From an uncultured Bacteroidales bacterium (GTDB lineage: Bacteria > Bacteroidota > Bacteroidia > Bacteroidales > F082), in NCBI GenBank assembly GCA_905233685.1, contig CAJOEZ010000008.1:1-64000 (forward strand): 64,000 nt of DNA. The letters run 5' to 3'. Below are positions 15,378 to 46,299 of the stretch, piece by piece. The notes under the pieces are model-generated. The model saw only the letters and a list, made by a program, of their open reading frames with translations. It ran no database searches and had not been told where the DNA came from. Position numbers and translations under genes: made by a program. How positions within the stretch are numbered: position 1 is the stretch's first letter; each line of letters opens with the position of its first letter.

Positions 15378-16916
15378 ATGATAACATTGTTTGACAGAAT
15401 CACTTTGGATGAAGTTGAAAAAGTGCTGTATTCTGGCGAGAAGATAAAAGTTTCGCCCGAATGGATGAACCGCGTGGAGGCCTGTTACCGCTTCTTGGAG
15501 AAGTTCGCCGCCGAAAAGGTCATCTATGGCATCAATACAGGCTTTGGCCCCATGGCGCAATGGCGTGTTGACGACAAATATCTTAATGATTTACAATATA
15601 ATATCATCCGCAGCCATTCCACAGGCGCAGGCGAACCTTTAGAGGATGTGTATGTGAAATCGGCCATGATTGCTCGCCTCGGAACGGTGTTGCAATGCCG
15701 TTCGGGCGTACATTCCGACGTGGTCAGAATCCTTGTGGAGTTCATCAACCATGAGATTTATCCCTTCATTCCCATGCACGGTAGCGTGGGCGCCAGCGGC
15801 GACTTGGTGCAATTGGCACATATCGCGCTGTGCTTAATCGGCGAAGGCGAAGTGCACTACAAAGGCCAATGGAGACCGACTGTTGAAGTGCTGAAGGAAA
15901 ATGGCATCGAGCCGCTGAAAATGCACATCCGAGAGGGACTTTCCATCACTAACGGCACCTCCGTAATGACGGGCATCAGTGTCATCAACCAGTTCTATGC
16001 CGAGACCTTGCTCGATTGGGCGACCTTGGCCGCCGTTTGGATGAACGAAATTGCAGCCTCTTTTGACGACTATATGTCGGAAGGCGAGAACAGCTGCCGC
16101 CGCCACGAAGGCCAACAGGTGATGGCTCGTCGTATGCGCGAACTCTCCAAAGGCTCGCAATGCCTGAAAAAACGCGCCCACGAACTTTACGACTACGGCC
16201 ACTCCGACGTGAAGGTGTTTGAACACAAGGTGCAGGCCTACTATTCGCTGCGCTGCACGCCACAAATTTTGGGTCCCATCTACGATACGCTGAAGTTTAC
16301 CCGCCAAATCCTTGAGGATGAACTCAATTCGGCTTGCGACAACCCCATCGTCGACCCAGAGACGGAGTATGTCTATCACGGCGGCAACTTCCACGGCGAC
16401 TATATCTCATTGGAGGAAGACAAGGTGAAAATCGCCTTAGTGCGCCTTGCCATGACTTCGGAACGACAGTTGAACTACCTGTTCCACGACCGCATCAACG
16501 GCATTCTTCCACCCTTCCTCAACCTCGGCACCCTCGGGCTGAACTACGGTATGCAGGCCTGCCAGTTCACGGCCACCTCGACAACCGCCGAGTGCCAGAC
16601 TTTGGCCATGCCCAACTATGTACACAGCATCCCGAACAACAACGACAACCAAGACATCGTCAGCATGGGCACCAACACCGCCTTGATTTGCAAGCAAGTG
16701 GTGGAAAACTGCTTCCAAGTGATGGCTATCCAATACATCGCCTTGGCGCAGGCCACTGACTGCCTCAAGATTGCCGACAAGCTAGCGCCCACTTCACGCA
16801 AAATGTACGACAAAGTGAGGGAAATCATACCGCTCTTCATTGAGGACACACCCTTCTACAAGGAAATTGCGGCCGTTGAGAACTATCTGAAAACGAACCC
16901 ATTGAAATTGAAATAA
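15378..16916 (+). CDS. Aromatic amino-acid ammonia-lyase (tyrosine/histidine type), polyene starter enzyme
   Basis: The product has 512 residues. The MIO prosthetic group forms from Ala139-Ser140-Gly141 in GSVGASGDLVQLAH, and the catalytic Tyr50 is in VIYGINTGFG. The sequence follows, from memory, the Flavobacterium tyrosine lyase of flexirubin synthesis more closely than HutH: VQL after the MIO loop, NGTSVMTGI, HGGNFHGDYISLE, QFTATSTTAE, HSIPNNNDNQDIVSMGTN. The RSHSTG motif is shared by histidine lyases and that tyrosine lyase, so it does not decide the substrate. No hutU or hutI is nearby, and the next genes are for fatty-acid-type assembly. I infer deamination of tyrosine to 4-coumarate as starter. 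Its stop overlaps the next start (TAATG). Confidence 0.9.
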   Translation: MITLFDRITLDEVEKVLYSGEKIKVSPEWMNRVEACYRFLEKFAAEKVIYGINTGFGPMAQWRVDDKYLNDLQYNIIRSHSTGAGEPLEDVYVKSAMIARLGTVLQCRSGVHSDVVRILVEFINHEIYPFIPMHGSVGASGDLVQLAHIALCLIGEGEVHYKGQWRPTVEVLKENGIEPLKMHIREGLSITNGTSVMTGISVINQFYAETLLDWATLAAVWMNEIAASFDDYMSEGENSCRRHEGQQVMARRMRELSKGSQCLKKRAHELYDYGHSDVKVFEHKVQAYYSLRCTPQILGPIYDTLKFTRQILEDELNSACDNPIVDPETEYVYHGGNFHGDYISLEEDKVKIALVRLAMTSERQLNYLFHDRINGILPPFLNLGTLGLNYGMQACQFTATSTTAECQTLAMPNYVHSIPNNNDNQDIVSMGTNTALICKQVVENCFQVMAIQYIALAQATDCLKIADKLAPTSRKMYDKVREIIPLFIEDTPFYKEIAAVENYLKTNPLKLK

Positions 16917-17644
16917 TGAAATACGCACTCATCACCGGCGCCTCTCGAGGATTGGGAAAAGCCATCGCCCTGCGCTTGGCCAAGGACGGTTTTGCCGTCG
17001 TTATCAACTACCAGTCGAACCGCGAGGCCGCCGAAGATACTTTGAAGCAAGTCCAAGAAGCCGGAGGCACGGGCGAACTGCTGCCTTTCGACGTTTCCAA
17101 TCCGCAAACCATCGAAACGGCTTTGGATTCGTGGTCGGCAAGCCACCCTGACGATTATATTTCCGTTTTGGTCAACAATGCGGGTATCCGTCAAGATAAC
17201 TTGATGATTTTCATGCAGGATGAACAATGGAACAAGGTCCTCGACACCACTTTGAACGGCTTCTTCTACATCACGCGCCGCCTGCTGAAGGACATGATGA
17301 CCCACCGCAACGGGCGCGTCATCAACATGGCTTCGCTGTCGGGACTGAAAGGCTTGCCCGGACAAACCAACTACTCTGCTGCTAAGGCTGCCCTCATCGG
17401 AGCCACCAAGGCCTTGGCACAAGAAGTGGCCGCTCGCAAGGTGACCGTCAACGCCATCGCCCCAGGTTTCATCACTTCCGACATGACCAAGGAGCTCAAC
17501 GAGGCCGAACTGAAGAAACTCATCCCGTTAGGTCGTTTCGGCAAACCTGAGGAAGTGGCTGCTTTGACCAGTTTCCTCGCCTCCGACGAGGCCGCCTATA
17601 TCACCGGACAAGTCATCTCCATCAACGGAGGTCTATACACCTAA
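16916..17644 (+). CDS. fabG: 3-oxoacyl-ACP reductase (FabG-type SDR)
   Basis: The 242-residue product is a classical short-chain dehydrogenase. It has the NADP-binding TGASRGLGKAIA, the NNAG motif at 87-90, and the catalytic Ser140, Tyr153 and Lys157 (NYSAAK), and it ends GQVISINGGLYT. In this cluster it would reduce each beta-keto group on the ACP-bound aryl chain before dehydration to the conjugated double bond. It is translationally coupled to the lyase. It could also serve ordinary fatty-acid synthesis, but the linkage favours the polyene pathway. Confidence 0.93.
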   Translation: MKYALITGASRGLGKAIALRLAKDGFAVVINYQSNREAAEDTLKQVQEAGGTGELLPFDVSNPQTIETALDSWSASHPDDYISVLVNNAGIRQDNLMIFMQDEQWNKVLDTTLNGFFYITRRLLKDMMTHRNGRVINMASLSGLKGLPGQTNYSAAKAALIGATKALAQEVAARKVTVNAIAPGFITSDMTKELNEAELKKLIPLGRFGKPEEVAALTSFLASDEAAYITGQVISINGGLYT

Positions 17645-17676
17645 AAAACAACTAAATAACTAAACAACTAATCACT

Positions 17677-18231
17677 ATGAAAAAAACTATTTTAACCATC
17701 GTCATGGCCATTTTCGCCATCACCGTATTCGCACAGAACGAAGAAACCAAGAGTTTTGTTCCCAACGGCTATCAAGGATTCCTTGAAGAAAGCAATTCGT
17801 GGCATTTCGACCAGAATTTAGCCACCACCATCCAGCTTTCGACCACACACGGTTTCTACTTCAACGACCATATTTACGCAGGTCTTGGCTTGGGTGTGGA
17901 ATTCAATTCAAATCTTTTCCTGATGCCTTTCTACACCAATTTCCGCTACATTTTCATCAACAAAAGTGCAGTCAGTCCTTTCATAAGCTTGCGCCTCGGT
18001 TCCTATGTTTCCAGCAATATGGGAGCCTACGGTGACCTGGCTCTTGGCGTGCGCTTTTCATCAAAGAGAGACTTTGCCGTCAGCGTGTTAGTGGCTGGTA
18101 CATATTATGACAAAATAACCCGCGAATATTATGATGAATTTGTCGATAACCAGGGCATTTGGCATAATGAGTGGGTGGTAAGACAAATCAACCCTTCGGG
18201 CATTTCCCTGAGAATTGGTATTGAATGGTAA
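17677..18231 (+). CDS. Exported outer-membrane barrel-like protein within the polyene cluster
   Basis: The 184-residue product has a clear signal peptide ending TVFAQ. Alternating strands follow (HIYAGLGLGVEFN, FISLRLGSYV, GDLALGVRF, DFAVSVLVAGTYY), ending SLRIGIEW with a terminal aromatic residue. This is the pattern of a small outer-membrane barrel. The leader is repetitive (AACAACTAAATAACTAAACAACTAA). Its place between fabG and a ketosynthase suggests a link to placing the pigment in the outer membrane. That is inference only, and no named family is recognised. Confidence 0.75.
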   Translation: MKKTILTIVMAIFAITVFAQNEETKSFVPNGYQGFLEESNSWHFDQNLATTIQLSTTHGFYFNDHIYAGLGLGVEFNSNLFLMPFYTNFRYIFINKSAVSPFISLRLGSYVSSNMGAYGDLALGVRFSSKRDFAVSVLVAGTYYDKITREYYDEFVDNQGIWHNEWVVRQINPSGISLRIGIEW

Positions 18232-18252: not shown

Positions 18253-19485
18253 ATGGCAAGAAGAGTCGTCATCACAGGCATGGGCATTTGGTCGTGCCTT
18301 GGAAAGAACAAGGAAGAAGTTGAAGCCTCGTTGCGCGAAGGCCGTTCGGGCATTGGCATCGATCCTCAACGTGTCGAATACGGCTATCGCTCGCCTTTGA
18401 CAGGCATTGTGGAACAGCCACAACTGAAAGGCAAACTCGACCGCAAGCTGCGTATGTATTTGGCCGAAGAGGGCGAATATGCCTATATGGCCACCTTGGA
18501 GGCTTTCCAACAAGCAGGGGTTGATGATGCCTATCTGTTGGAAAACGAAGTCGGTGTGTTGTTTGGCAACGATTCGTCGGCCAAGGCAGTATTAGAGGCT
18601 CACGAAATAGCCATGGAAAAGAAAGACACCACCTTAATTGGTTCTGCCGCTATTTTCCGTTCGATGAACTCCACGGTGACGATGAACCTTTCCACCATCT
18701 TCCACCTGAAAGGCATCAACATGACCATCAGTGCAGCCTGCGCCAGCGGCTCCCATTCCATCGGATTGGGTGCTATGCTGATTCGCAACGGCTTGCAGGA
18801 CATGGTGCTTTGCGGTGGCGCACAAGAAACCAACTATCTCTCGATGGGCAGCTTCGACGGCATCAGCGCGTTCTCGATTCGCATCGACGAACCCGCCAAA
18901 GCCTCACGCCCCTTCGACCGCGACCGCGATGGACTGGTGCCAAGCGGTGGTGCGGCGGCCTTGGTTTTAGAGGATTATGACCATGCTGTTGCCCGAGGCG
19001 CCACCATTTTGGCTGAGGTGTCTGGCTACGGGTTTTCTTCCAATGGCGAAATCCACATCTCGCAGCCCAGTGAGGACGGCTGCTATCGTGCCATGACCCG
19101 CTCAATGAAAGAAGCTGGAATCGAGCCGGCCGATGTTGACTATGTGAACGCTCACGCCACCTCTACGCCACAAGGCGACATGTTTGAGGCTTTAGCTTTG
19201 AAACGGCTCTTTGGCAAAACCCAAACGCCCATCTCGTCCACCAAATCCATGACTGGCCACGAGTGCTGGATGGCAGGCGCCAGCGAAATCGTCTATTCCA
19301 TCCTGATGATGCAAGGCGGCTTCATCGCCCCGAACATCAATTTCGAGCACCCCGACGAATACTCCAAAGGCTTGAATATCATCAATACCACGACCAACAA
19401 GGAGCTCAATGTCATCCTCTCCAATTCCTTTGGCTTTGGAGGAACCAACTCGGCATTGGTGATTAAAAAAACAAATAATAACTAA
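18253..19485 (+). CDS. Beta-ketoacyl-ACP synthase (FabB/FabF type)
   Basis: The 410-residue product has the complete Cys-His-His triad: Cys163 in SAACASGSHS, His301 in VNAHATSTPQGD and His336 in STKSMTGHE. It ends SNSFGFGGTNSALVI. It should condense malonyl-ACP with the aryl or polyenoyl-ACP. It is one of three ketosynthase genes with full triads in the cluster. A secreted-protein gene lies on each side, but all run in the same direction with small gaps. Confidence 0.93.
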   Translation: MARRVVITGMGIWSCLGKNKEEVEASLREGRSGIGIDPQRVEYGYRSPLTGIVEQPQLKGKLDRKLRMYLAEEGEYAYMATLEAFQQAGVDDAYLLENEVGVLFGNDSSAKAVLEAHEIAMEKKDTTLIGSAAIFRSMNSTVTMNLSTIFHLKGINMTISAACASGSHSIGLGAMLIRNGLQDMVLCGGAQETNYLSMGSFDGISAFSIRIDEPAKASRPFDRDRDGLVPSGGAAALVLEDYDHAVARGATILAEVSGYGFSSNGEIHISQPSEDGCYRAMTRSMKEAGIEPADVDYVNAHATSTPQGDMFEALALKRLFGKTQTPISSTKSMTGHECWMAGASEIVYSILMMQGGFIAPNINFEHPDEYSKGLNIINTTTNKELNVILSNSFGFGGTNSALVIKKTNNN

Positions 19486-20045: not shown

Positions 20046-21155
20046 ATGCATCTTACTCCTACATTAAAAGAAGCCTACAGTAAGGAACATATGACCGCTC
20101 GTGAGGCACAAGTTAAGGCCGAATGGATCGCTTGGGGGCCCATCGTGTTCCAAGTGAGCCGCTTGATGAAAAAATTCGGCATCTTCGAGATGTTGCGCAA
20201 CAGCGACAACGGCATGACTGATACCGAGGTGGCCCAGGAAGCCAACATTAGTGGCTATGCTGCCAAGGTGATGCTCGAAGCGAGTCTGTGCATTGGCACG
20301 GTGCTCATCGACCCTGAAACCGATCGTTACACCTTAAGCAAGACGGGCTGGTTCTTCATCACCGACCGTGCTACCGATGTGAACACCGAGTTCAACCACG
20401 ATGTGAACTACGAAGGTTGGTTCCGCCTTGAAGAAAGTCTGAAAGAGGGCCGTCCCGTTGGACTGGAGCATTTCGGTCCATGGCCTACGATGTACGAAGG
20501 TCTCTCGCAGTTGCCGCCTCAAGTGCAAAAAAGCTGGTTTGGCTTCGACCATTTCTATAGCGACAGCTCATTCCAACAAGCCTTGGAAATCATATTCGCC
20601 AACAAGCCCAAGACCTTGCTTGACGTGGGTGGCAACACAGGTCGCTGGGCCTTGCAGTGCGTGGGCTTCGACCAAGAGGTAAAGGTGACCATCGTGGACC
20701 TGCCGCAACAGCTTGACATGATGCGCCGCAATACTGCCGGCAAGCCTGGGGCCGACCGCATCGACGATTATAGCATGAACCTGTTGGATGCTTCGCAAGC
20801 CTTCCCGACAAACAAGCATTACGACGCCATTTGGATGAGCCAATTCCTCGACTGCTTTGGCGAGGATGAGATTGTCAGCATCGTGAGCCGCGCCGCCAAG
20901 ATTATGGACGGTAATAGCCGCTTATATATCATGGAAACCTTTTGGGACCGTCAGCGCTTCGAGCCTGCTGCCTTCTGCCTCACCATGACGAGCCTCTATT
21001 TCACCGCCATCGCCAACGGTAACAGCAAGATGTATCATTCCGACGATATGGAACGCTTGGTTAAAAAAGCAGGCTTGGAAGTGGAACAAATCCATGACGG
21101 CCTCGGACACGGACACAGTATTATGGTTTGCAAAAAATGCGGTATGCGGAATTAG
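20046..21155 (+). CDS. SAM-dependent methyltransferase (O-methyltransferase-like)
   Basis: The 369-residue product has an N-terminal helical/winged-helix dimerisation region (residues of about 10-110, with GMTDTEVAQEANISGYAAKVML) typical of plant-type small-molecule O-methyltransferases. The class I SAM fold follows, with motif I LLDVGGNTGRWAL near 190 and the acidic strand VTIVDLPQQ. A methyl group on the aryl ring is a common decoration of aryl polyenes, so this is the likely reaction. C- versus O-methylation cannot be settled by eye. Confidence 0.85.
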   Translation: MHLTPTLKEAYSKEHMTAREAQVKAEWIAWGPIVFQVSRLMKKFGIFEMLRNSDNGMTDTEVAQEANISGYAAKVMLEASLCIGTVLIDPETDRYTLSKTGWFFITDRATDVNTEFNHDVNYEGWFRLEESLKEGRPVGLEHFGPWPTMYEGLSQLPPQVQKSWFGFDHFYSDSSFQQALEIIFANKPKTLLDVGGNTGRWALQCVGFDQEVKVTIVDLPQQLDMMRRNTAGKPGADRIDDYSMNLLDASQAFPTNKHYDAIWMSQFLDCFGEDEIVSIVSRAAKIMDGNSRLYIMETFWDRQRFEPAAFCLTMTSLYFTAIANGNSKMYHSDDMERLVKKAGLEVEQIHDGLGHGHSIMVCKKCGMRN

Positions 21156-21225: not shown

Positions 21226-21468
21226 ATGGAAAGACAAGAAATAGAAGCAAAAGTCAGGGAGTTCCTCATCGAAGACCTTGAAATTGAAGAAGAAAAGATA
21301 CAGCCGGATGCCCGTTTGAAGGAAGACATTGGCATCGACAGTCTCGACTTCATCGACATTGTAGTGATTGTCGAGAAGAAATTTGGCTTCAAAATCAAGA
21401 CCGAAGAGATGGCTAATGTGAAGACGTTCAGCCAATTCTGTGACTATATCGAAACAAAGGTTGCCTAA
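21226..21468 (+). CDS. Acyl carrier protein
   Basis: The 80-residue acidic four-helix protein has the phosphopantetheine site GIDSLDFI with Ser39. It carries the growing chain as a thioester. It is one of two carriers in the cluster; the other has a DSID motif, so the two may serve different enzymes (for example starter loading versus elongation). The start at 21226 follows the AT-rich leader. The next gene begins 7 nt after its stop. Confidence 0.95.
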   Translation: MERQEIEAKVREFLIEDLEIEEEKIQPDARLKEDIGIDSLDFIDIVVIVEKKFGFKIKTEEMANVKTFSQFCDYIETKVA

Positions 21469-21475: not shown

Positions 21476-22366
21476 ATGGCCGACTCTTTTCAACATAAAG
21501 AATGGTCGGGTAAGACTGACGGCTTGCCGTGGATGCAACGCTCTCTCATCGTGATGCTCCGTATACTGCCCTTGTGGTTGCTTTACGGAGTTATGGCTTT
21601 GGTAGTGCCGTTTTATTTGCTTTTTGGCAAGAGTTTCAGGCCGACATATAGATTCTTTCGAGAAGGGTTGGGTTATGGGAAACTGAAGGCGTTTTGGAAA
21701 GTCTACGTGAACCATTTCTATTTTGGGCAAGTCGTTTTAGACCGCTTTGGCGTATATGCAGGCAAGCAATATGATTTTGTTGTTGATGGTCAGTCCTTGT
21801 CTGATGAATTGGAGCAAAGCCCCGAAGGTTTCATGCAGTTAAGTTGTCATGTGGGAAATTATGAGATGTCAGGCTATTTTGTTCATCCAAAACACAAAAA
21901 AATCCATATGCTGTCATACAGCGGTGAAACCGAGACCATAATGGATAACCGCCGGCGCATCTTTGCTCAACACAACGTGGAGATGATTTTGGTGAAAGAA
22001 GACCTCTCGCATTTGTTTACTCTGAATTCCGTCCTCGACAATGGCGATATTGTCAGCATGATGGCCGATAGGGTTTTCGGATCGCAAAAAACCGTTGAGT
22101 GTCAGTTTTTTTCAAAGCCCGCAGACTTCCCCGCCGGGCCGTTTTCCATTGCAGTCCAAAAAAATGTCCCCGTTTTGGCTGTTTTCGTAATGAAAGATGG
22201 CATGAAGAAATACCATATCTTCATCAAGAGGCTTAACTGGGACACTACGTTAAACAAACGCGAACAAGTAGCACAATTAGCACAAACATTTGTTTCGACA
22301 CTTGAAGAAATGGTTCGGCAATACCCGATACAATGGTTCAATTACTATGATATTTGGAAACAATGA
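21476..22366 (+). CDS. LpxL/HtrB-type lipid A-like acyltransferase
   Basis: The product has about 296 residues. I place the start at ATG 21476, just after the ACP stop; a longer frame would overlap the ACP. There is an N-terminal membrane helix (residues 28-50). The catalytic HX4E motif is HVGNYE at 125-130, and there is a VSMMADRVFG block near 195-205. Members of this family move an acyl chain from ACP to a hydroxyl on a lipid at the inner membrane. Aryl polyene clusters carry such an enzyme, thought to attach the polyene chain to its anchor. It overlaps the next gene by ATGA. Confidence 0.9.
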   Translation: MADSFQHKEWSGKTDGLPWMQRSLIVMLRILPLWLLYGVMALVVPFYLLFGKSFRPTYRFFREGLGYGKLKAFWKVYVNHFYFGQVVLDRFGVYAGKQYDFVVDGQSLSDELEQSPEGFMQLSCHVGNYEMSGYFVHPKHKKIHMLSYSGETETIMDNRRRIFAQHNVEMILVKEDLSHLFTLNSVLDNGDIVSMMADRVFGSQKTVECQFFSKPADFPAGPFSIAVQKNVPVLAVFVMKDGMKKYHIFIKRLNWDTTLNKREQVAQLAQTFVSTLEEMVRQYPIQWFNYYDIWKQ

Positions 22367-22815
22367 GCATATCCATAAATGAAATAAACGTAAGAGAATT
22401 GTTGCCTCAACAACCGCCTTTTGTCATGGTTGATAGGCTGCTGTCTTGTGACGACAAATCTTCGGTGACCGAATTGAAAATCCGCAGCGACAATGTCTTC
22501 TTTAGTGAGGATTGCCTTTTGACGGCAGGTTTGGTCGAGAATATTGCCCAGACTTGTGCCGCTGGTATCGGATACAGGAATATGAACCGTAGCGGTAGTA
22601 TTAAGATTGGTGTTATTGGAGCACTCAACAATCTTGAGGTCAATAGATTACCTAAAAATGGTGAAAAAATCACAACTACTGTGAATTGTGTGGAAGAAGT
22701 GTTTCAAATGATGATGTTTGATGCCGTTGTGAAAAGTGGAGAAGAAGTGTTGGCTACAACATCCATAAAAACTGCTTTGACGGACATCGAGGCTAAAAAC
22801 GAAGGCGATGAATAA
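22363..22815 (+). CDS. FabZ-like hotdog dehydratase homolog lacking the catalytic His
   Basis: The 150-residue product starts at ATG 22363, overlapping the previous stop. It has the FabZ opening LLPQQPPFVMVDRL at 13-26. In FabZ this reads LLPHR..., so the catalytic His is replaced by Gln16. The second catalytic position is kept as Glu59 in GLVENIAQ. The fold and the ACP-facing strand are otherwise recognisable. It may be the dehydratase of chain elongation working with another subunit, or a non-catalytic partner. It overlaps the thioesterase-like gene by 8 nt. Confidence 0.83.
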   Translation: MSISINEINVRELLPQQPPFVMVDRLLSCDDKSSVTELKIRSDNVFFSEDCLLTAGLVENIAQTCAAGIGYRNMNRSGSIKIGVIGALNNLEVNRLPKNGEKITTTVNCVEEVFQMMMFDAVVKSGEEVLATTSIKTALTDIEAKNEGDE

Positions 22816-23242
22816 GGAACATGAATTATTTGCAACAAAGGAAGTAGAGATTCGTTTCAGCGAGGTTGACTCGATGGGCGTGGTGTGGCACGGCCATTAT
22901 GCCATGTATTTCGAGGATGCCCGTGAGGAGTTCGGCAAAAAGTACGATTTGGGCTATCTGATGATGTATGACAAAGGCTTTTTCGAGCCTTTGGTGGAGC
23001 TGACTTTCAAGTATAAGCGTCCTTTGGTTTACGGCATGAAGCCTGAAATCTACATTGTCTATCGCCCTTGTGATGCCGCCAAAATCATCTTCGATTACGA
23101 AATCCGCGACCCCGAGACCAAGGAAATCTTTGCGACCGGGCATTCCATTCAGGTGTTTATGGACAAAAACACCTATCAATTGGTGTTGACCAATCCCGAG
23201 TTTTATGAGGATTGGAAAAAGCGTTGGGAGGTAAGTGCATGA
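22808..23242 (+). CDS. 4HBT-type thioesterase (YbgC/FadM-like hotdog)
   Basis: The 144-residue product has the family signature FSEVDSMGVVWHGHYAMYFEDARE, in which Asp18 of the VDSMG turn is the usual catalytic Asp. A single hotdog domain follows. Such enzymes hydrolyse acyl-CoA or acyl-ACP thioesters. In an aryl polyene pathway it may release stalled or finished chains. It overlaps its neighbours by 8 nt upstream and by ATGA downstream, so it is made together with the assembly enzymes. Confidence 0.9.
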   Translation: MNKEHELFATKEVEIRFSEVDSMGVVWHGHYAMYFEDAREEFGKKYDLGYLMMYDKGFFEPLVELTFKYKRPLVYGMKPEIYIVYRPCDAAKIIFDYEIRDPETKEIFATGHSIQVFMDKNTYQLVLTNPEFYEDWKKRWEVSA

Positions 23243-24384: not shown

Positions 24385-24947
24385 AGGTTTATATCAATCC
24401 TGAGACGGTGATGATCAACGGCAAAGCATTGGAACACAAGGAAAAAGGCTCCGCTTTGCTGACAGAAGTGTATCGTACCTATGTCGGCGATTATCCCAAG
24501 TTCTTCAAGATGGACACCTTGAGCAAGTTGGGTTTTGTGGCTTCGGAATTGCTGTTGCAAGCAGAGGGCAAACCGCGTTTCGAGCCTTGCGAAGACCGTG
24601 CCGTCGTGTTGTTCAACTGCTGTGCCTCGTTGCAGGCCGACACGGCTTATCAAGCCACGATACAAGACCCTGAGCATTTCTTCCCCAGTCCGGCGGCGTT
24701 CGTCTATACTTTGCCCAACATCGTGACGGGCGAAATCGCCATCCGAAACAAATATTTTGGCGAGACTTCCTTCATGGTCTTGCCTGAGCGCGACCCGCAA
24801 ATCATGGCACAACAATTGCAGAACGCCTTCCTCGACCCGATGACCACAAGCATCCTCGGCGGTTGGCTCGATTGCAGCGACGAGTCGCATTTTGAAGCAG
24901 AATTATTCATCATCAAATCTTTGAATTTTAAATCTTTGAATCTTTGA
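24378..24947 (+). CDS. Ketosynthase-like small protein (no active-site Cys seen)
   Basis: The 189-residue product resembles the N-terminal half of a ketosynthase fold, with VLFNCCASLQADTAYQ and SPAAFVYTLPNIVTGEIAIRN. It lacks the C-terminal His motifs and cannot form a normal triad. Homologues in similar Bacteroidota clusters are, as I recall, annotated as 3-oxoacyl-ACP synthase-like. It may be a structural partner like a chain-length factor. Its last codons run into the AT-rich repeat, giving a repetitive tail KSLNFKSLNL that is probably not functional. Confidence 0.7.
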   Translation: MLKVYINPETVMINGKALEHKEKGSALLTEVYRTYVGDYPKFFKMDTLSKLGFVASELLLQAEGKPRFEPCEDRAVVLFNCCASLQADTAYQATIQDPEHFFPSPAAFVYTLPNIVTGEIAIRNKYFGETSFMVLPERDPQIMAQQLQNAFLDPMTTSILGGWLDCSDESHFEAELFIIKSLNFKSLNL

Positions 24948-24964
24948 ATTTTAAATCTTTAAAT
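24916..24964 (+). repeat. Duplicated AT-rich leader element before the second ACP gene
   Basis: A 22-nt unit starting AATCTTTGAATTTT occurs perfectly at 24916-24937 and 24939-24960. The second copy and the following AAAT form a near match to the 27-nt leaders at 21192 and 14185. The downstream end is 9 nt before the ACP ATG. The first copy is inside the coding end of the upstream gene. Confidence 0.85.
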
Positions 24965-24973
24965 AACAAAATC

Positions 24974-37701: not shown

Positions 37702-37706
37702 CGTAG

Positions 37707-37728: not shown

Positions 37729-37772
37729 GTTAAAACAAATGTCCACCCTCAACTATTAAACAACAACAGAAA

Positions 37773-38135
37773 ATGAAAGTATCCCCAGAATATTACGACG
37801 AAATTTTCCCCTTCAAAGGCGAATGGGATATGGAATCCACCTGTGGCCTGAAAATCAGGGAAGTAGATGGCAAAAAGTATGTCATCGTGACCGAATTGTA
37901 TCAAGACAATCCAGGTACTTCGGTAACCTATGCCGGACGCAAGCTCGCCGACCAGATTTGCGAGGCAAAAAACCTGAAATTGGAAGACATCGTCTATTTG
38001 GAATGCACACCCAACACCAACTCGAAGCTGTCGTTCTACGATGAAGAATATTTCCAAGTGGATTTCTTCGCCGACATGCAACACAAATATCGCCAACTTT
38101 CCAAAGAGGAAGTGATGAAAATCTTAAGCAAATGA
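37773..38135 (+). CDS. Small cytoplasmic protein of unknown function
   Basis: The 120-residue product has no signal peptide or membrane helix. It begins MKVSPEYYDEIFPFKGEWDM and is rich in acidic and aromatic residues, with a helical C-terminus. I recognise no family. It overlaps the esterase gene by ATGA, so it belongs to the same transcript. The base composition matches its neighbours. Confidence 0.7.
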   Translation: MKVSPEYYDEIFPFKGEWDMESTCGLKIREVDGKKYVIVTELYQDNPGTSVTYAGRKLADQICEAKNLKLEDIVYLECTPNTNSKLSFYDEEYFQVDFFADMQHKYRQLSKEEVMKILSK

Positions 38136-39055
38136 TAAAAGGTAAAGCATTGGTTTTCGGTTTGTTACTGCTTTTCTTCGGACAAGCCCTTGCCCAAGAA
38201 AGCATCCCGCTTTGGGAAGGGTATCACGTGCCTCACGGCAAGCAAGTCACACTGACGCCCTATTTGGCTGACAGTAATGAGATGGGGCTTGCCATCATCG
38301 TGTGTCCGGGCGGAAGTTATTTCTGGCTCGACGAAAAGACCGAAGGCGACGGCGTGGCGCAGTGGTTGCAAAAAAACGGCATTTCTGCCTTCGTGTTGCG
38401 CTATCGGGCGGCGGGTTTCGGCGCTTTCTTTTGGCATCACCGCGCCATTTTCCGAGGCAAGCAATACCCTGACATGCTCATCGATGCACAACGTGCCCTG
38501 CAATGGGTACGCGAACACGCCGAGGAATACAAAATCGACCCCAACAAAGTGGGCATGATGGGCTTTTCGGCAGGCGGCCATTTGGTGATGTCGGCAGCTT
38601 GTTTCAATGAAACCAACTTCTTGAAAGAAAACGGAATAGACACGGAAGCCAGCCTCTGCCCCGCCTTCGTCGCCCCGATTTATCCTGTGGTGACGATGCA
38701 CGAGCCATACGTTCACAAGCGCTCGCGCAGGGCCTTGCTCGGCGAGAAGCAACAACACAACCCGACAATGATTGACTCCCTTTCATTGGAACAACACATT
38801 CCCACCGATTGCCCGCCCGTTTTCCTAATCAACTGTGCCGACGATCCTGTAGTAGACTACCACAACTCCATCCTCCTCGACTCCGCCTTGACTGTCAATA
38901 ACATTAGCCATCAATATATCCGCTACTATACCGGCGGCCACGGTTTCGGTGCGAGCGAAGAAAAAGGCACGCCAGAATGCAGGGCCTGGAAAAATGAGTT
39001 TCTCAATTGGGTTAGGTCCCTGAGCCTGTCGAAGGGCCGTCATGACAACAATTAA
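38132..39055 (+). CDS. Exported alpha/beta-hydrolase esterase
   Basis: The 307-residue product has a signal peptide ending ALAQ. The oxyanion region is ICPGGSY-like (IVCPGGSYFWLD), the nucleophile elbow is GFSAGGHL, the acid lies in NCADDPVVDYHN, and the His lies in GGHGFG. This matches the acetyl-xylan-esterase/BD-FAE-like group of Bacteroidota. In the cluster it may trim an acyl or ester bond of the exported lipid, or it may be a passenger gene. The last residues (RSLSLSKGRHDNN) are encoded by a REP-like sequence (39015-39038), so the natural C-terminus has been replaced or extended. Confidence 0.85.
   Translation: MIKGKALVFGLLLLFFGQALAQESIPLWEGYHVPHGKQVTLTPYLADSNEMGLAIIVCPGGSYFWLDEKTEGDGVAQWLQKNGISAFVLRYRAAGFGAFFWHHRAIFRGKQYPDMLIDAQRALQWVREHAEEYKIDPNKVGMMGFSAGGHLVMSAACFNETNFLKENGIDTEASLCPAFVAPIYPVVTMHEPYVHKRSRRALLGEKQQHNPTMIDSLSLEQHIPTDCPPVFLINCADDPVVDYHNSILLDSALTVNNISHQYIRYYTGGHGFGASEEKGTPECRAWKNEFLNWVRSLSLSKGRHDNN
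39015..39038. repeat. Single REP arm at the esterase 3' end
   Basis: GGTCCCTGAGCCTGTCGAAG plus GGCC, followed by the palindrome GTCATGAC. It is the same family as the arms at 26423 and 27134. No partner arm is seen nearby. Confidence 0.85.
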
Positions 39056-39064
39056 ACAAATCAC

Positions 39065-39082
39065 AGATTCAACGAAGTTAAT
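39065..39082 (+). repeat. 18-nt dispersed repeat, copy 2
   Basis: Identical to 21164-21181. It lies 13 nt before the CoA-ligase-like start codon and just after the REP arm. Confidence 0.8.
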
Positions 39083-39095
39083 CAACGCTATAATA

Positions 39096-40397
39096 ATGAT
39101 TACCAACGATATAGAATACAAACCCATAGAAGAAATTAAGGCCTATCAAGAAGGTTTGCTGCATGAGGCTTTGGCCTATCTGCAAGCCCATTCGCCGTAC
39201 TATCAGCGGATGTTCAAAAGCTATGGCATCAACATCGAAAAGATTCGGCATATTGAGGATTTGGTGAAGATTCCGTTCACCGAGAAGAAGGATTTGCAAC
39301 TGTTCAACGACGAGTTCCTTTGCTGCCCGAAGGAGAAAATCATCGACTATATCACCACTTCCGGCACCCTCGGCGACCCCGTTACCTTTGGCTGCACCGA
39401 AAAGGATTTGCAACGCTTGGCCTACAACGAGAAAAAGTCGTTTGAATGCGCGGGCGTGAAACCAGGCAATGTGGTGCAACTGATGACCACCTTGGACAAG
39501 CGTTTCATGGCGGGACTGGCCTATTTCCTGGGTTTGCGCGAACTCGGCGCAGGCGTCATTCGCGTAGGCAACGGCATCCCCGAATTGCAGTGGGACACCA
39601 TCCGCCGCATCAAGCCCGACACCATTATGTGTGTGCCTTCGTTCATTCTGAAACTGATACAATACGCTGAGGAACACGGCATTGACTACCACAACAGCAG
39701 CATCCGCCGCATCATCGGTATCGGTGAAGGTTTGCGCGAGCAGAACTTCGAGCTCAACCTGCTGGGCCGTAAAATCAAGGAGAAATGGGACGTGCAACTC
39801 TTCGCCACCTATTCCTCGACAGAGATGGGCGCGACATTCTCGGAGTGCGAATACGGGCAAGGCGGCCACGTGCATCCCGAACTCATCATCGTGGAAATCA
39901 TCGGTGATGATGGTCTGCCTGTTCCCGACGGTCAACCGGGTGAAATCGTGGTCACCACTTTGGGTGTGGAGGCCATGCCGCTGCTGCGTTTCCGCACGGG
40001 CGACATCGCCGCCAAAATCGTCGACCAATGCCGATGCGGGCGCAATTCCTACCGCCTCACGCCGCTCGTGGGCCGCAAGAACAACATGATTAAGTTGAAA
40101 GGCACAACACTCTATCCACCAGCGATTAACGATGTTCTCGACAACACTGATTATGTCGAAAATTATGTCATCGAAGTGCGCCAAAGCGAGGCTGGCACGG
40201 ATGATGTGGTAGTGAAAATCGGATTGAAGTATCAACCTGATTTTGACGTGGTCAAAATACTGAAAGACAGTTTCCGCTCACGTATCCGCGTGGCACCGCA
40301 AATCGAAATCCTTCCCACCGAGATGATTCAGAAAATCAACTATCCCGCCAAGAGTCGCAAACCCATCAAATTCATTGACTTTAGGAACAAGGAATGA
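39096..40397 (+). CDS. AMP-dependent ligase (phenylacetate-CoA-ligase-like)
   Basis: The product has 433 residues; the start at ATG 39096 avoids an N-terminal extension encoded by the repeats. Visible are YITTSGTLGDPVTFG (the AMP-binding loop), FATYSSTEMGATFSECEYG, GEIVVTTLGVEAMPLLRFRTGDIA and the C-terminal lid, the order seen in PaaK-like adenylating enzymes. It should activate an aryl acid as an acyl adenylate and then pass it to CoA or ACP. The ammonia-lyase product (coumarate or similar) is the obvious candidate, making this the starter-loading enzyme. It overlaps the next gene by ATGA. Confidence 0.88.
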   Translation: MITNDIEYKPIEEIKAYQEGLLHEALAYLQAHSPYYQRMFKSYGINIEKIRHIEDLVKIPFTEKKDLQLFNDEFLCCPKEKIIDYITTSGTLGDPVTFGCTEKDLQRLAYNEKKSFECAGVKPGNVVQLMTTLDKRFMAGLAYFLGLRELGAGVIRVGNGIPELQWDTIRRIKPDTIMCVPSFILKLIQYAEEHGIDYHNSSIRRIIGIGEGLREQNFELNLLGRKIKEKWDVQLFATYSSTEMGATFSECEYGQGGHVHPELIIVEIIGDDGLPVPDGQPGEIVVTTLGVEAMPLLRFRTGDIAAKIVDQCRCGRNSYRLTPLVGRKNNMIKLKGTTLYPPAINDVLDNTDYVENYVIEVRQSEAGTDDVVVKIGLKYQPDFDVVKILKDSFRSRIRVAPQIEILPTEMIQKINYPAKSRKPIKFIDFRNKE

Positions 40398-41518
40398 GCA
40401 ATTTCGATGACATCAGGCCCTATTACCCCGAAGAAATACCTGCGGCGACTCAACGTATGGCCGACAGCGAGGTGATTCCTGCCATCGCCCAATTTTTAGG
40501 TAAATCCCCCATGATGCTTCGCGAAAGAATCCGAGGTATCAAAACCGTTTCGGAATTCCAGCTGGGGCTGCTTCGGGATGTGATAGAAACCCTGGTGAAA
40601 AAGACCACTACAGGTTTTGATTGGTCGGGGGTGGAGAACATATACGAGAAGAAGCCTTACCTTTTCGTCTCCAACCACCGTGACATCGTGCTTGATGCCA
40701 TGTTTCTGCAATATATTCTTTGCAATATGGGGCAAAACACCTGCCAGATTACCTTCGGAAGCAACCTGATGTCACACCCTTTTGTCATCGATTTCGGCAA
40801 GGTGAACAAGATGTTCCGCACCGAGCGTGGTGGAACACCCAAGGAGTTCTACAACAGCATGTTGCATATGTCGGAATATATGCGCCATGTCATTACTGAA
40901 GTGCATGAGTCGGTGTGGATTGCCCAGCGCAACGGTCGCACCAAGGACGGCATTGACGCCACTGACCCCGCCATCATCAAGATGTTTGGCATGAGCCGCT
41001 GCGACGACAGGGTGGCTTCGTTAGCTGAACTGAACATTGTTCCCGTGGCGGTGTCCTACGAATGGGAGTCGTGCGACAAGCTGAAGACCCTGGAACTTTA
41101 TGCCCGCCGCAAAAACGGCCATTACGAGAAGCAACCCAACGAAGACATCAACAGCATCCTGACGGGCATCATGCAACCCAAGGGTTATGTACATTTCCAT
41201 ATTTGCCCAATGGTCACGGAAGCGGATTTGGTTTCATTGAACGACTGCAACTCAAGCGATTACTACAAGCGCGTGGCCGAGCTGATGGACAGCCGCATCA
41301 ACCCGAATTATTATCTCCATCCCAACAACTACATTGCCCACGATCTACGCAGCGGAACGGAGACCTACGCAAGCCGATACACCGCCGAGCAAAAGGCACA
41401 GTTTTTGCGTTATATGGACTGGATGAACGACTATCCCGACATGGACCGCAAGGTGTTGGAAGAGATTTTCCTTGGGATTTATGCTAATCCAATAAAGAGC
41501 GTAAATAAAACAAAATGA
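40394..41518 (+). CDS. PlsB/PlsC-like glycerolipid acyltransferase
   Basis: The 374-residue product has an acyltransferase core with FVSNHRDIVLD at 91-101 (motif I, His95), FRTERGG (motif II-like) and ESVWIAQRNGRTKDG (motif III). The region after it (KTLELYARRKNGHYEKQP) resembles the larger glycerophosphate acyltransferases. Motif I reads H-X5-D rather than H-X4-D if Asp101 is the acid. It may acylate a glycerol phosphate made available by the GpsA encoded at the end of the cluster. No membrane helix is obvious. Confidence 0.8.
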   Translation: MSNFDDIRPYYPEEIPAATQRMADSEVIPAIAQFLGKSPMMLRERIRGIKTVSEFQLGLLRDVIETLVKKTTTGFDWSGVENIYEKKPYLFVSNHRDIVLDAMFLQYILCNMGQNTCQITFGSNLMSHPFVIDFGKVNKMFRTERGGTPKEFYNSMLHMSEYMRHVITEVHESVWIAQRNGRTKDGIDATDPAIIKMFGMSRCDDRVASLAELNIVPVAVSYEWESCDKLKTLELYARRKNGHYEKQPNEDINSILTGIMQPKGYVHFHICPMVTEADLVSLNDCNSSDYYKRVAELMDSRINPNYYLHPNNYIAHDLRSGTETYASRYTAEQKAQFLRYMDWMNDYPDMDRKVLEEIFLGIYANPIKSVNKTK

Positions 41519-42084
41519 AAAAGTTAATACTGATATTGTTGTTATCGATCAGTTATGCAGCCTTTACCCAGGAACCTGTTCGCCAATCGGTGGTTGATGC
41601 AGAAAAGGCCGCCTTACTGAAAGAAATAAACAAACAGCAGAAATCGTTCAGCTGCCATTTTGTGGAGGAAAAAAACATTGCCGTTTTAGACGAAACGGTG
41701 GTGTCGAAAGGCATCATCACTTACGAGGCTGCCAAACAATTGACCTGCGAATACACCGAGCCGGAATCGTTGATACTGAGCAAAGACGCCAATGGCAACC
41801 TCAGCGTGACCAAAAATGGTAAACCCATGAAAGCCAACATGATGCACAAGCAGATGATGGACATGATGGAAACCTTTGTCAGCGGGAAAGCCGTGGGGCA
41901 GTCAAACGAATATGAAGCGGAGGTGTGGTCATGCGACAAGGACTATATTGTCAGCTTGACGCCAAAAGCCGCCTCAAGGTTCAGTGTGATAGAGCTATAT
42001 CTCAACAAAGAGTCCAAAAGGATAGAAAAAACGGTCTTGAAAGAGACGAGAGGCGACTGCACCACCATCACCATGTCGGAGTAG
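41515..42084 (+). CDS. Divergent LolA-like periplasmic protein
   Basis: The 189-residue product has a signal peptide ending AAFTQ. The LolA pattern is FSCHFVEEKNIAVLDETVVSKG, then ITYEAAKQLTCEYTEPESLIL and a final strand series ending DCTTITM. It is more divergent than the LolA-like protein at 27927 and has a Met-rich segment (MMHKQMMDMMETF) near residue 105. It overlaps the acyltransferase gene by ATGA and lies before the ABC exporter. A role as periplasmic carrier for the lipid exported by that system is likely but unproven. Confidence 0.8.
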   Translation: MKKLILILLLSISYAAFTQEPVRQSVVDAEKAALLKEINKQQKSFSCHFVEEKNIAVLDETVVSKGIITYEAAKQLTCEYTEPESLILSKDANGNLSVTKNGKPMKANMMHKQMMDMMETFVSGKAVGQSNEYEAEVWSCDKDYIVSLTPKAASRFSVIELYLNKESKRIEKTVLKETRGDCTTITMSE

Positions 42085-42109: not shown

Positions 42110-42868
42110 ATGTCATCAGCGATTCTGAATATTGAAAAACTTACCAAGTCATATCCCGACCTGAACAAGCAGGTGCTTACCGGGCTTTGCTTAAAGGTGG
42201 AGAAAGGTGAAATTTACGGCTTTCTGGGCCCCAATGGCGCGGGCAAAACCACCACGGTGAACATCATTTCTGGACTGTTGAAAGGCGATTCGGGCCAGAT
42301 TGAAATGTTTGGCAGACCTTACAACGAGAACAGAAATTACATCAAACACCACATGGGTTTGGTGCCGCAAAACATTGCCGTTTTTCCCGAGTTGACCGCC
42401 TACGAAAACTTGAAAATTTTCGGAGCCATCTATGGCATGGAAAACAAAGCGTTGAAAAGCAGAATTGACGAACTGCTTGAGCTGTTCGGCCTGATGAATT
42501 TCAAGAACAAGAAAGTGGCCTCGTTTTCAGGAGGCATGAAGCGTAGCGTCAATCTGATGGTGGGCATATTGCACAAGCCTGATTTACTGATTCTTGACGA
42601 ACCAACAGTCGGCATTGATGTCCAGTCGAAAATGGTCATTTTGGAAAATCTGAAAAGCCTCAACAAGGAAGGCGTTTCCATTTTGTACACCTCGCACGAC
42701 ATGGAAGAGGCCCAGCACCTTTGCACGCGGGTCGGCATCATCGACGGCGGAAAGTTGGTGGCTGAAGATACGCCTTCGGGGTTGATAGCCGCCCATGAGG
42801 GTTGCGACGACCTCGAATCGGTTTATCTTCGCTTGACCGGAAGAAAACTCAGAAACATGGAGGATTAA
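42110..42868 (+). CDS. ABC transporter ATP-binding protein
   Basis: The 252-residue product has all nucleotide-binding motifs: Walker A GPNGAGKTT, the Q-loop in LVPQNIAVFPELTAYENL, signature FSGGMKRSVNL, Walker B LLILDEPTVGID and the switch His in YTSHDMEEAQ. The subfamily is that of ABC-2 exporters (DrrA/CcmA-like). The permease gene starts 4 nt downstream. Export of a lipid or pigment precursor is inferred from the cluster. Confidence 0.94.
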   Translation: MSSAILNIEKLTKSYPDLNKQVLTGLCLKVEKGEIYGFLGPNGAGKTTTVNIISGLLKGDSGQIEMFGRPYNENRNYIKHHMGLVPQNIAVFPELTAYENLKIFGAIYGMENKALKSRIDELLELFGLMNFKNKKVASFSGGMKRSVNLMVGILHKPDLLILDEPTVGIDVQSKMVILENLKSLNKEGVSILYTSHDMEEAQHLCTRVGIIDGGKLVAEDTPSGLIAAHEGCDDLESVYLRLTGRKLRNMED

Positions 42869-42872: not shown

Positions 42873-44147
42873 ATGAAGAGACTCATTAATTTGATATACA
42901 AAGACTTCCTTTTGCTCGTCCGTGACAAGGCAGGCTTGGTTTTTCTGTTTGTCATGCCTTTGGTTTTAGTGTTGGTGATGACGGGTATGCAGGAAGGAGC
43001 GTTGGAAAGCGCAACGAAAAACTCGATTTCACTAATTGTCTTAGATTCGGACAAGGACGAAATCGGACTGACCGTCGAGAAGGAACTGCAAGAAAAAGAC
43101 ATGTTCGACGTCAAAATTGCCGATGCATCGATGACAGAAGCCGAAGTGCAGAATTTGGTCAGGAAGGGCACCTATCTGATAGGCGTTTACATCCCCGAAA
43201 ACACCACGGCGAAGATCCAAGGCAATGTGCAGAAAAGCATTGCGGCGGCGTTTGCAGGTTTGCCAGCCTCTGTGACTGAAGGAAAAATGGACACGGTCTC
43301 CATCAAAGTCTTCCTTGACCCAACCATCAACAGCACATTCCGCACCACCTTGATGAGTTATTTGCGCGAAGCGTCGAACCAAATCGAGAACGAATACATG
43401 TTTGCCAAAATTTCGGAGGAGGTAAACGAAAGGGCGATGCTGCCCATGGGTGAGTTCAGCCTGTCGGCGGCCCAACCCGTGGGCATTGAGGAAATCACCT
43501 ATTCCAACCATGACGACGCGAAAGCAAACTTCGACGCAGCCGCACACAATGTACCAGCTTGGACCTTGTTCGCCATCTTTTTCATTGTCATTTCTTTGTC
43601 GGGGAGCATCATCAAGGAGCGGGAGGACGGCAGTTTTGCCCGCCTGATGACCATGCCTTGCCCCTATTCTTTATATCTGTTGAGCAAGGTGATTGTTTAT
43701 GTGGCGGTCTGCCTCGCCCAGTTCTTAGTGGTCATGCTCATGGGCAAATGGTTGTTCCCGCTAATAGGTTTACCCGTGTTCGACATGCACGGGACTTTCT
43801 TCTATTGCCTGATTGTGGTGTTTTGTGCGGCTTTGGCGGCCATCGGCTTCGGTTTGCTCATCAGCACATTTGCCACTACACACCAGCAGGCGGCCATCTT
43901 CGGCGCGGTTTCGGTCGTGATACTTTCCGCCATCGGCGGTATCTGGGTGCCAACGTTCCTTATGCCGAAATTCTTGAAGGCGTTGAGTATGATTTCGCCG
44001 CTCAATTGGGGCATTGAGGCCTTCTACGGGCTCATCTTGCGCGGTGGAAGCTTCGTTTCGGTACTGCCTCAGTGTTTACTGCTACTGGCTTTCGCGGCAG
44101 TGTGCTTCGTCATCTCCTTGTTGGCTCAAGGTAAAAAGAGCTTTTGA
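42873..44147 (+). CDS. ABC-2 type transporter permease
   Basis: The 424-residue product has one N-terminal helix (about 22-40), a large extracytoplasmic domain (about 45-215), and five or six C-terminal helices from about 230 (WTLFAIFFIVISLSGSIIKEREDG). This is the ABC2_membrane_3 layout. The motif after the second helix, EREDGSFARLMTMP, is the usual coupling segment. It pairs with the upstream ATPase. This system is additional to the MMPL exporter, so the cluster has two export routes. Confidence 0.92.
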   Translation: MKRLINLIYKDFLLLVRDKAGLVFLFVMPLVLVLVMTGMQEGALESATKNSISLIVLDSDKDEIGLTVEKELQEKDMFDVKIADASMTEAEVQNLVRKGTYLIGVYIPENTTAKIQGNVQKSIAAAFAGLPASVTEGKMDTVSIKVFLDPTINSTFRTTLMSYLREASNQIENEYMFAKISEEVNERAMLPMGEFSLSAAQPVGIEEITYSNHDDAKANFDAAAHNVPAWTLFAIFFIVISLSGSIIKEREDGSFARLMTMPCPYSLYLLSKVIVYVAVCLAQFLVVMLMGKWLFPLIGLPVFDMHGTFFYCLIVVFCAALAAIGFGLLISTFATTHQQAAIFGAVSVVILSAIGGIWVPTFLMPKFLKALSMISPLNWGIEAFYGLILRGGSFVSVLPQCLLLLAFAAVCFVISLLAQGKKSF

Positions 44148-45279: not shown

Positions 45280-45282
45280 GAC

Positions 45283-46299
45283 ATGGAAACGAAGAACAAG
45301 CTTGATACGAACTCACGTTGCGCCGTCATAGGCCACGGCAGTTGGGCAACAGCAATTGTCAAAGTATTGACAATGAAAGGGCTGTCTGTCGTTTGGTATA
45401 TTCGCAACACCGAAGTGTTGGAATCATTGCGCACCGAAGGGCGCAATTGCCGCTATCTCCCTGATGTTGAGTTTGATACAAGCCTTATCCATCTTTCCGA
45501 CGATGTGAACGAAGCAGTGAAGGACGCCGATACCATCCTTTTGGTCACGCCGGCAGCCTACCTGAAAAGCAGCCTTTCCGATTTGAAAGTTTCACTGAAG
45601 GACAAGTTTGTTGTTTCGGCTATCAAAGGCATTATTCCCAATGAAAAACAACTAGTTACCGATTATCTGAAGAAAACCTACGGCCTGTCGGGAGCGCAGG
45701 TGTGCTTTATCGGTGGTCCAACCCATGCTGAAGAGGTGGCGCATGGAAGACTCACCTATTTGACCTTAGCCTGCGCCAATGTCGGCAAGGCCCGTGCCTT
45801 TGGCGAGAAGCTGCAAACGCCTTACCTCAAAGTGAACTATGTTCGGGGTATGCGCTATTTGGAACGTGCCGCCGTGTTGAAAAACATCTACGCCGTCATG
45901 GTGGGCATGGCCGTGGGCTTGGGCTACGGCGACAACTTCATCTCCGTTTTGGTGTCAAACTGCATCAAGGAGATGTTCTTCCTGCTCGACCCAAAAAGCG
46001 TCAACGACCTCTTTAAATTCAATCCATCCAATTTCTTCGGTGATTTGTTGGCCTCGTGCTATTCAAGCCACAGTCGCAACCGCCAGTTGGGTATGCTCAT
46101 CGGACGCGGCAACACCGTGAAAACCGCCCTCAACGAGATGACAATGGTGGCCGAGGGTTATTTCGCCTCAGCTATGCTACCTCTTATTATTAATGAGCAA
46201 AAAGTACAACTCCCAATTGCCGAAACCGCCTACCAAGTGCTGCATCAAGGCTTGCCAGCACGCAAGGCAATGAAAAGCTTAGAAGACCTTTTGGCGTAA
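45283..46299 (+). CDS. gpsA: NAD(P)-dependent glycerol-3-phosphate dehydrogenase
   Basis: The 338-residue product has the nucleotide motif VIGHGSWATAIVKVL and the family blocks VSAIKGIIPNEKQLVTDYL and CFIGGPTHAEEVAHGR. The catalytic Lys region lies near LERAAVLKNIYAVMVGMAVGLGYGDN. It reduces dihydroxyacetone phosphate to sn-glycerol 3-phosphate, the backbone for phospholipids. It may be the housekeeping copy, but its place directly after the polyene genes suggests backbone supply for an aryl-polyene glycerolipid. Confidence 0.93.
   Translation: METKNKLDTNSRCAVIGHGSWATAIVKVLTMKGLSVVWYIRNTEVLESLRTEGRNCRYLPDVEFDTSLIHLSDDVNEAVKDADTILLVTPAAYLKSSLSDLKVSLKDKFVVSAIKGIIPNEKQLVTDYLKKTYGLSGAQVCFIGGPTHAEEVAHGRLTYLTLACANVGKARAFGEKLQTPYLKVNYVRGMRYLERAAVLKNIYAVMVGMAVGLGYGDNFISVLVSNCIKEMFFLLDPKSVNDLFKFNPSNFFGDLLASCYSSHSRNRQLGMLIGRGNTVKTALNEMTMVAEGYFASAMLPLIINEQKVQLPIAETAYQVLHQGLPARKAMKSLEDLLA

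What the first reader, a model, noticed from the sequence alone, without database searches (positions are those of the whole stretch)
15378..46299. 30-gene aryl-polyene-type cluster that looks built to make a glycerolipid-anchored polyene
Seen: a lyase, a CoA-ligase-like enzyme, two ACPs, three ketosynthase genes, a reductase, two dehydratase-like proteins, a methyltransferase, a glycosyltransferase, an LpxL acyltransferase, an MMPL exporter and LolA proteins, the usual aryl polyene set. Unusual additions are a PlsC domain on the exporter, a separate PlsB/PlsC-like enzyme, a BtrH-like protein, an ABC exporter and gpsA at the end. Inference: the polyene chain is esterified to a glycerol-phosphate backbone made by GpsA. 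The anchor of aryl polyene lipids is still incompletely described, so this set of genes is informative.
Basis: partly seen in the sequence, partly recalled or inferred. Interest (0 to 1): 0.82.

Follow-up and report, generated by a model that had tools for sequence, protein, structure and literature searches.

The report
Aryl-polyene pigment cluster with glycerolipid genes
A gut Bacteroidales genome carries a known type of yellow-pigment (aryl polyene) gene cluster that lacks the usual flexirubin partner genes and instead ends in a lineage-specific enzyme that looks like a glycerol-phosphate acyltransferase, with the only glycerol-phosphate-making gene found in that genome close by, which makes a glycerol-anchored pigment plausible but unproven.

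The parts
15378..16916 (+). g1 tyrosine ammonia-lyase FlxA
   Evidence: NCBIfam NF053541 840.6 bits, cut-off 700; PF00221
16916..17644 (+). g2 ketoreductase FlxB
   Evidence: NF053542 410.7, cut-off 340; 45% to the E. coli APE FabG
17677..18231 (+). g3 secreted protein, outer-membrane-protein-like by eye only
   Evidence: no Pfam match; signal-like N-terminus
18253..19485 (+). g4 ketosynthase
   Evidence: PF00109/PF02801; 35% to E. coli C_RS05565
19502..20023 (+). g5 secreted-type hypothetical protein
   Evidence: no Pfam match
20046..21155 (+). g6 methyltransferase FlxJ family
   Evidence: NF053543 598.1, cut-off 560; 42% to the E. coli APE methyltransferase
21226..21468 (+). g7 acyl carrier protein 1
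   Evidence: PF00550
21440..22366 (+). g8 LpxL-type acyltransferase; matches the C-terminal half of E. coli ApeJ
   Evidence: PF03279; blastp 1.8e-19
22354..22815 (+). g9 FabZ-like dehydratase
   Evidence: NCBIfam FabZ models, below cut-off
22808..23242 (+). g10 4HBT thioesterase (ApeK-like)
   Evidence: PF13279; 33% to E. coli
23212..24384 (+). g11 ketosynthase
   Evidence: PF00109/PF02801
24378..24947 (+). g12 conserved cluster protein, no family
   Evidence: no Pfam/NCBIfam match
24944..25231 (+). g13 acyl carrier protein 2
   Evidence: PF00550; 49% to an E. coli APE ACP
25236..27566 (+). g14 fused KS-CLF, 776 aa
   Evidence: Pfam; active Cys only in the N-terminal half
27570..27923 (+). 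g15 EamA small membrane protein
   Evidence: PF00892
27927..28556 (+). g16 LolA carrier
   Evidence: PF03548
28567..29010 (+). g17 FabA-like dehydratase
   Evidence: PF07977
28997..29773 (+). g18 GT2 glycosyltransferase; matches the N-terminal half of E. coli ApeJ
   Evidence: PF00535; 3.2e-34
29770..33372 (+). g19 MMPL exporter fused to a PlsC acyltransferase (ApeM+ApeD)
   Evidence: PF03176+PF01553; E. coli MMPL 4e-6, ApeD 1.9e-15
33369..36365 (+). g20 fused pair of CrtI-type FAD oxidoreductases
   Evidence: PF01593/PF13450, two stretches each; halves 35% identical
36397..37701 (+). g21 B12-binding radical SAM protein
   Evidence: PF04055 (over cut-off), PF02310 (below cut-off)
37773..38135 (+). 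g22 hypothetical, conserved with g21
   Evidence: 37 of 80 loci, as for g21
38132..39055 (+). g23 alpha/beta hydrolase with signal-like N-terminus
   Evidence: PF20434; 79 of 80 loci
39042..40397 (+). g24 aryl-CoA ligase FlxY
   Evidence: NF053551 699, cut-off 520
40394..41518 (+). g25 GPAT1/PlsB-like acyltransferase, lineage-specific cluster member
41515..42084 (+). g26 second LolA-like protein; not recognised in the near relatives
   Evidence: NF053544 LolA2_flexi 88, below cut-off 125; 0 of 75 loci
42110..42868 (+). g27 ABC ATPase, dar-cluster type
   Evidence: PF00005; 42-52% to ABC ATPases beside BtrH
42873..44147 (+). g28 ABC-2 permease
   Evidence: PF12698
44245..45279 (+). g29 BtrH/DarH-like acyltransferase, C13-H128-D144 intact
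   Evidence: PF14399+PF16169; NF053550 DarH 253.6, below cut-off 300; alignment A2; fold
45283..46299 (+). g30 GpsA, the only gpsA found in the genome
   Evidence: PF01210/PF07479; copy number

Best explanation
This is a flx-type aryl-polyene lipid cluster of (mostly ruminant-gut) Bacteroidales in which the dialkylresorcinol genes are not found, so it is not a flexirubin cluster proper. Inferred pathway: FlxA makes 4-coumarate from tyrosine; FlxY activates it; KS/KS-CLF, FlxB and the two dehydratases extend it to a polyene on an ACP; FlxJ methylates it. The polyene acid is then built into an outer-membrane lipid by the LpxL, GT2 and PlsC activities and moved by the MMPL domain and LolA proteins. 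In this lineage a GPAT1/PlsB-type enzyme (g25) sits next to FlxY. Its most likely role is to acylate glycerol-3-phosphate, so that g25 and the PlsC domain of g19 together can build a phosphatidate-like anchor that carries the polyene. GpsA (g30) is the cell's ordinary and apparently only G3P dehydrogenase, kept near g25 in the nearest species; it would supply the G3P but is not a pigment-specific copy. Shown here: gene content, family membership, conservation, gpsA copy number, predicted fold. Inferred: every reaction of g25, g29 and g19 in this organism, and the glycerol anchor itself.
Against: No substrate evidence for any late enzyme. gpsA is not near g24 in 51 of 69 assessable named loci and in none of 29 flx regions of wider relatives, so glycerol supply is not a general part. 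g25 is missing in 6 of 78 loci and in 23 of the 29 wider regions (four of these 20 kb or shorter). Comparison of g25 with E. coli PlsB is not significant (hhalign probability 2%), no PDB sequence matches it, and its motif reads H-x5-D, not H-x4-D. g25 and g30 could be housekeeping: PlsY was not found in G000, and none of the other PF01553 proteins of this genome resembles g25 in sequence. The adjacency of a g25-like gene to gpsA outside the cluster was seen in only two genomes (79 gpsA loci held, some genes twice).
Confidence: 0.5

Rival explanations
1. Housekeeping neighbours: g25 and g30 start ordinary phospholipid synthesis in this lineage and merely sit at the end of the pigment operon. 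The polyene is anchored as in other aryl-polyene bacteria, by PlsC/LpxL/GT2 only.
For: g30 is the only gpsA found in G000 and in each of the 18 relatives that have it there and groups among ordinary gpsA. PlsY was found in only 3 of 38 chosen genomes and not in G000. None of the other PF01553 proteins of G000 resembles g25 in sequence. In several relatives a gene on the other strand, AMP-ligase-like by eye, lies between g25 and gpsA.
Against: G724 and G725 keep two g25-like genes, one against gpsA and one in the pigment cluster. g25 stays after FlxY, with a 4-bp overlap in the window, over relatives down to about 42% identity. Other PF01553 proteins of G000, such as the frame at C5:87779, are alternative housekeeping candidates whose activity is unknown.
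Confidence: 0.3
2. BtrH (g29) is the attachment enzyme: it moves the polyene from its ACP to an amine or hydroxyl of a non-resorcinol acceptor, as DarH may do in flexirubin makers. g25 and g30 are secondary.
Against: BtrH is absent from 59 of 69 assessable relatives' loci, including 8 of the 18 with gpsA, so it cannot be the general attachment step.
Confidence: 0.15
3. A real flexirubin producer whose dar genes lie in the missing 14% of the assembly.
For: g26-g29 resemble dar/flexirubin-cluster parts (LolA2, ABC pair, DarH-like). The genome is 85.9% complete.
Against: No DarA in G000 nor in genus relatives G676, G494, G592, all 99% complete (these three have no BtrH either). g29 falls with the 10 relatives' BtrH proteins, apart from the DAR-linked ones, in a midpoint-rooted FastTree whose support values I did not examine, and is below the DarH cut-off.
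Confidence: 0.05

Closest known systems
Chitinophaga pinensis flx cluster (Cpin_1853-1877; PMC3992019)
   Same: tyrosine ammonia-lyase, coumarate ligase, type-II synthases, a phospholipid/glycerol acyltransferase, LolA, glycosyltransferase and exporter, as the paper lists them
   Different: C. pinensis has darA/darB at another locus and makes flexirubin; here no DarA was found, and a GPAT1-like gene and gpsA lie at the end
E. coli CFT073 APE cluster (C_RS05565-05650)
   Same: 13 of 30 window proteins hit it at E<=0.01, 12 of them at 1e-5 or better, including matches to ApeD, ApeM, ApeJ, ApeB, ApeK and ACPs
   Different: no lyase annotated there; its ligase gave no hit to g24; no hits for g20-g25 or g29; ApeD and ApeM are separate genes, GT2 and LpxL are fused
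dar cluster of Azoarcus (darA, B, E, F, I; PMC3949708)
   Same: BtrH-like protein with an ABC ATPase and permease
   Different: darA and darB are not found here; g29 scores below the DarH cut-off
Human GPAT1 / bacterial PlsB glycerol-3-phosphate acyltransferases
   Different: 374 aa, H-x5-D motif, no significant sequence match

Membership tests
flx (flexirubin-type) aryl-polyene cluster | FlxA lyase, FlxB reductase, FlxJ methyltransferase, FlxY ligase above curated cut-offs | tested here: met
   840.6/700, 410.7/340, 598.1/560, 699/520
Flexirubin biosynthesis proper | DarA and DarB for the dialkylresorcinol half | tested here: not met
   no DarA in G000 at E<=1e-10; no KASIII hit of G000 on the BtrH contig; neither in the window. 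Caveat: genome 86% complete; DarB was not searched genome-wide with its own sequence
Aryl-polyene lipid cluster (E. coli ape type) | homologues of ApeD, ApeJ, ApeK, ApeL, ApeM and the type-II synthase | tested here: met
Aryl-polyene lipid cluster (E. coli ape type) | product is a polyene-bearing outer-membrane lipid | not testable with these tools
   needs chemistry
DarH (BtrH-related acyltransferase, NCBIfam equivalog) | score at or above the curated cut-off of 300 | tested here: not met
   253.6 bits
BtrH-fold carrier-protein acyltransferases | fold and Cys-His-Asp triad | tested here: met
GPAT1/PlsB glycerol-3-phosphate acyltransferases | fold of the GPAT/PlsC superfamily, nearest to GPAT1 | tested here: met
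GPAT1/PlsB glycerol-3-phosphate acyltransferases | significant sequence homology and H-x4-D motif | tested here: inconclusive
   hhalign 2% probability but the HR..D and G.NL stretches line up; motif is NHRDIVLD
GPAT1/PlsB glycerol-3-phosphate acyltransferases | acylation of G3P | not testable with these tools
   needs enzyme assay
GpsA dedicated to the pathway | a second gpsA besides the housekeeping one | tested here: not met
   one gpsA in G000 and in each of 18 relatives by PF07479

The most novel reading that the evidence does not exclude
In ruminant Bacteroidales the resorcinol of flexirubin has been replaced by glycerol phosphate: a pigment-specific GPAT (g25) puts the aryl polyene on G3P, the exporter's PlsC domain completes a polyenyl phosphatidate, and the cell's single gpsA is held at the pigment operon, tying G3P synthesis to pigment-lipid synthesis.
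Probability: 0.25. Interest if true: 0.72.

Novelty: new variant of a known kind. Interest (0 to 1): 0.47.

Why it matters
What holds aryl polyenes in the outer membrane is known only in part. A lineage in which the resorcinol half is not found, the polyene half is kept, and a G3P-acyltransferase-like enzyme is conserved beside the ligase gives a concrete, testable candidate for a glycerol anchor. It also means that flx clusters in this order should not be annotated as flexirubin clusters without darA/darB: of 48 lyase-positive order genomes tested for DarA, 18 had none (48 of 60, not chosen at random).

Tried and rejected
GpsA as a dedicated extra copy: rejected by copy number. A lysS-gpsA-pgi housekeeping neighbourhood (a recalled arrangement): not seen; LRR, BlaI-like and M56/TonB proteins follow g30. 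Early reading that gpsA is never near flx clusters: 0 of 29 regions was true only for the genomes drawn; the named relatives overturned it for the nearest clade, and I changed the conclusion. PlsC-on-exporter as a special feature: rejected. g26-g28 as conserved members of the near relatives: not borne out (g26 in 0 of 75 loci, g28 in 0 and g27 in 1 of 69); short secreted-type ORFs lie between g25 and gpsA in 13 of the 18 loci but match g26 only at E 1.1. Sequence searches of g25 against solved structures: nothing at E<=1; of g29: only weak or coiled-coil/unrelated rows. First E. coli stretch missed the APE cluster. Literature: ten searches showed in their listings no paper on gpsA or a GPAT in a Bacteroidales polyene cluster; full texts were not read for this, and the library lacks most subscription papers. 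The published structure of an aryl polyene lipid (Grammbitter et al., bioRxiv 2020) is known to me only from its mention in PMC8253772 and the reference list of PMC9966250; I did not read it.
Full report
OBSERVATION. Thirty ORFs of one strand fill 15378-46299 with gaps of -31 to +97 bp. Its nearest named relatives by FlxY are Bacteroidales/Bacteroidia assemblies, mostly from ruminant guts by their titles.

WHAT IT IS. NCBIfam equivalogs place it in the flx family of polyene clusters: FlxA 840.6 bits (cut-off 700), FlxB 410.7 (340), FlxJ 598.1 (560), FlxY 699 (520). In Chitinophaga pinensis FlxA was shown to be a tyrosine ammonia-lyase, and the abstract reports the characterization of a 4-coumarate-CoA ligase, FlxY in the text (PMC3992019; first of five parts of the text, and passages). 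Against the E. coli CFT073 APE cluster, g18 and g8 match the two halves of ApeJ, and g19 matches both ApeM (4e-6) and ApeD (1.9e-15). So the PlsC domain is core machinery, differently fused. Gene letters Ape* are assigned by me from Table 1 of PMC8253772, products and gene order.

FLEXIRUBIN OR NOT. Flexirubin needs darA and darB. A DarA search of 65 chosen genomes found it in 40: 40 of the 54 with BtrH and 0 of the 11 without. G000 and its genus relatives G676, G494 and G592 have none. Neither DarA nor DarB is in the window or within the 80 named loci. Reading the coordinates together, a DarB-type synthase lies within about 5 kb of BtrH in 16 of the 23 BtrH-positive genomes, not in G000. In the order sample BtrH goes with the lyase: 38 of 60 lyase-positive and 10 of 235 lyase-negative genomes have it. 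BtrH plus an ABC pair is already listed in the Azoarcus dar cluster (darE, darF, darI; PMC3949708, passages). So g27-g29 are relatives of known dar companions, without the dar pair.

GPSA. g30 is the only match to the GpsA C-terminal family in G000; a second N-terminal-domain hit, 26.7 bits and just over cut-off, lies in a 438-aa frame elsewhere. Of 69 named loci with at least 5.5 kb downstream, 18 have gpsA near g25. These are exactly the 18 whose g25 is at least 75% identical to the window's; gaps 11-3,658 bp, same strand; none of the other 51 has it. In a nineteenth genome (G703, behind L242, too short for the count) the gpsA contig carries an end of g25 too. Each of the 18 genomes has one gpsA (40 of 42 genomes searched there had one, two had none). 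The next-closest, G676-type species keep one gpsA not within the fetched loci; the four compared are 24-25% identical to g30 and sit on a deep branch. g30 groups with ordinary Bacteroidales gpsA such as G402 (53%), G505 and G604, genomes with no lyase match and no BtrH match. So the location is a conserved trait of one clade, but the gene is not an added copy. PlsY was not found in 35 of 38 chosen genomes, G000 among them, so these bacteria need some other first acylation enzyme, which keeps the housekeeping rival alive.

MECHANISM. Shown: content, order, families, copy number, predicted folds. Inferred: tyrosine to coumarate (FlxA), activation (FlxY), elongation and dehydration on ACPs, methylation (FlxJ), attachment by PlsC/LpxL/GT2 activities, transport by MMPL and LolA. 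In this lineage g25 probably acylates G3P; with the PlsC domain this would yield a phosphatidate-like anchor. Whether either acyl group is the polyene is unknown. A glycerophospholipid-derived intermediate was already proposed for E. coli APE (PMC8253772), so the idea is not new; the lineage-specific GPAT-like gene and the gpsA placement are what I did not see in print in the ten searches listed.

VERDICT. New variant of a known kind.

Noticed in passing
25236-27566: KS and chain-length factor are one fused protein here; they are separate genes in the same-class genome G025. By a script test 3 of 32 named loci with KS3 hits showed a fused frame, some of the others being cut by the locus end.
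   Followed up: partly
36397-38135: g21 (B12 radical SAM) and g22 are more conserved (85-98% and 70-98% identity) than most enzymes around them, and occur together in 37 of 80 loci; substrate unknown.
   Followed up: no
33369-36365: Two CrtI-type oxidoreductases fused in one 998-aa protein; a 505-aa frame at the corresponding place in G025.
   Followed up: no
L321 and L327 (gpsA loci of G725 and G724): gpsA overlapped by 1 bp by a GPAT1-like gene outside any polyene cluster: a possible gpsA-GPAT phospholipid pair.
   Followed up: partly
L239:2813-9194 (G618): ABC pair, BtrH, ACP and a g25-like gene together in a genome without a match to the lyase or DarA: a lipid cluster of unknown product.
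   Followed up: no
G592 (same genus): A 99%-complete genus member with neither the polyene lyase nor any gpsA match.
   Followed up: no
10201-11358 (-): Card1-like CARF nuclease.
   Followed up: no
48050-50884: M56 peptidase with TonB C-terminal domains (three stretches) after a BlaI-like repressor.
   Followed up: no
51077-59761 (-): Very large ORF of 2,894 aa, not annotated.
   Followed up: no
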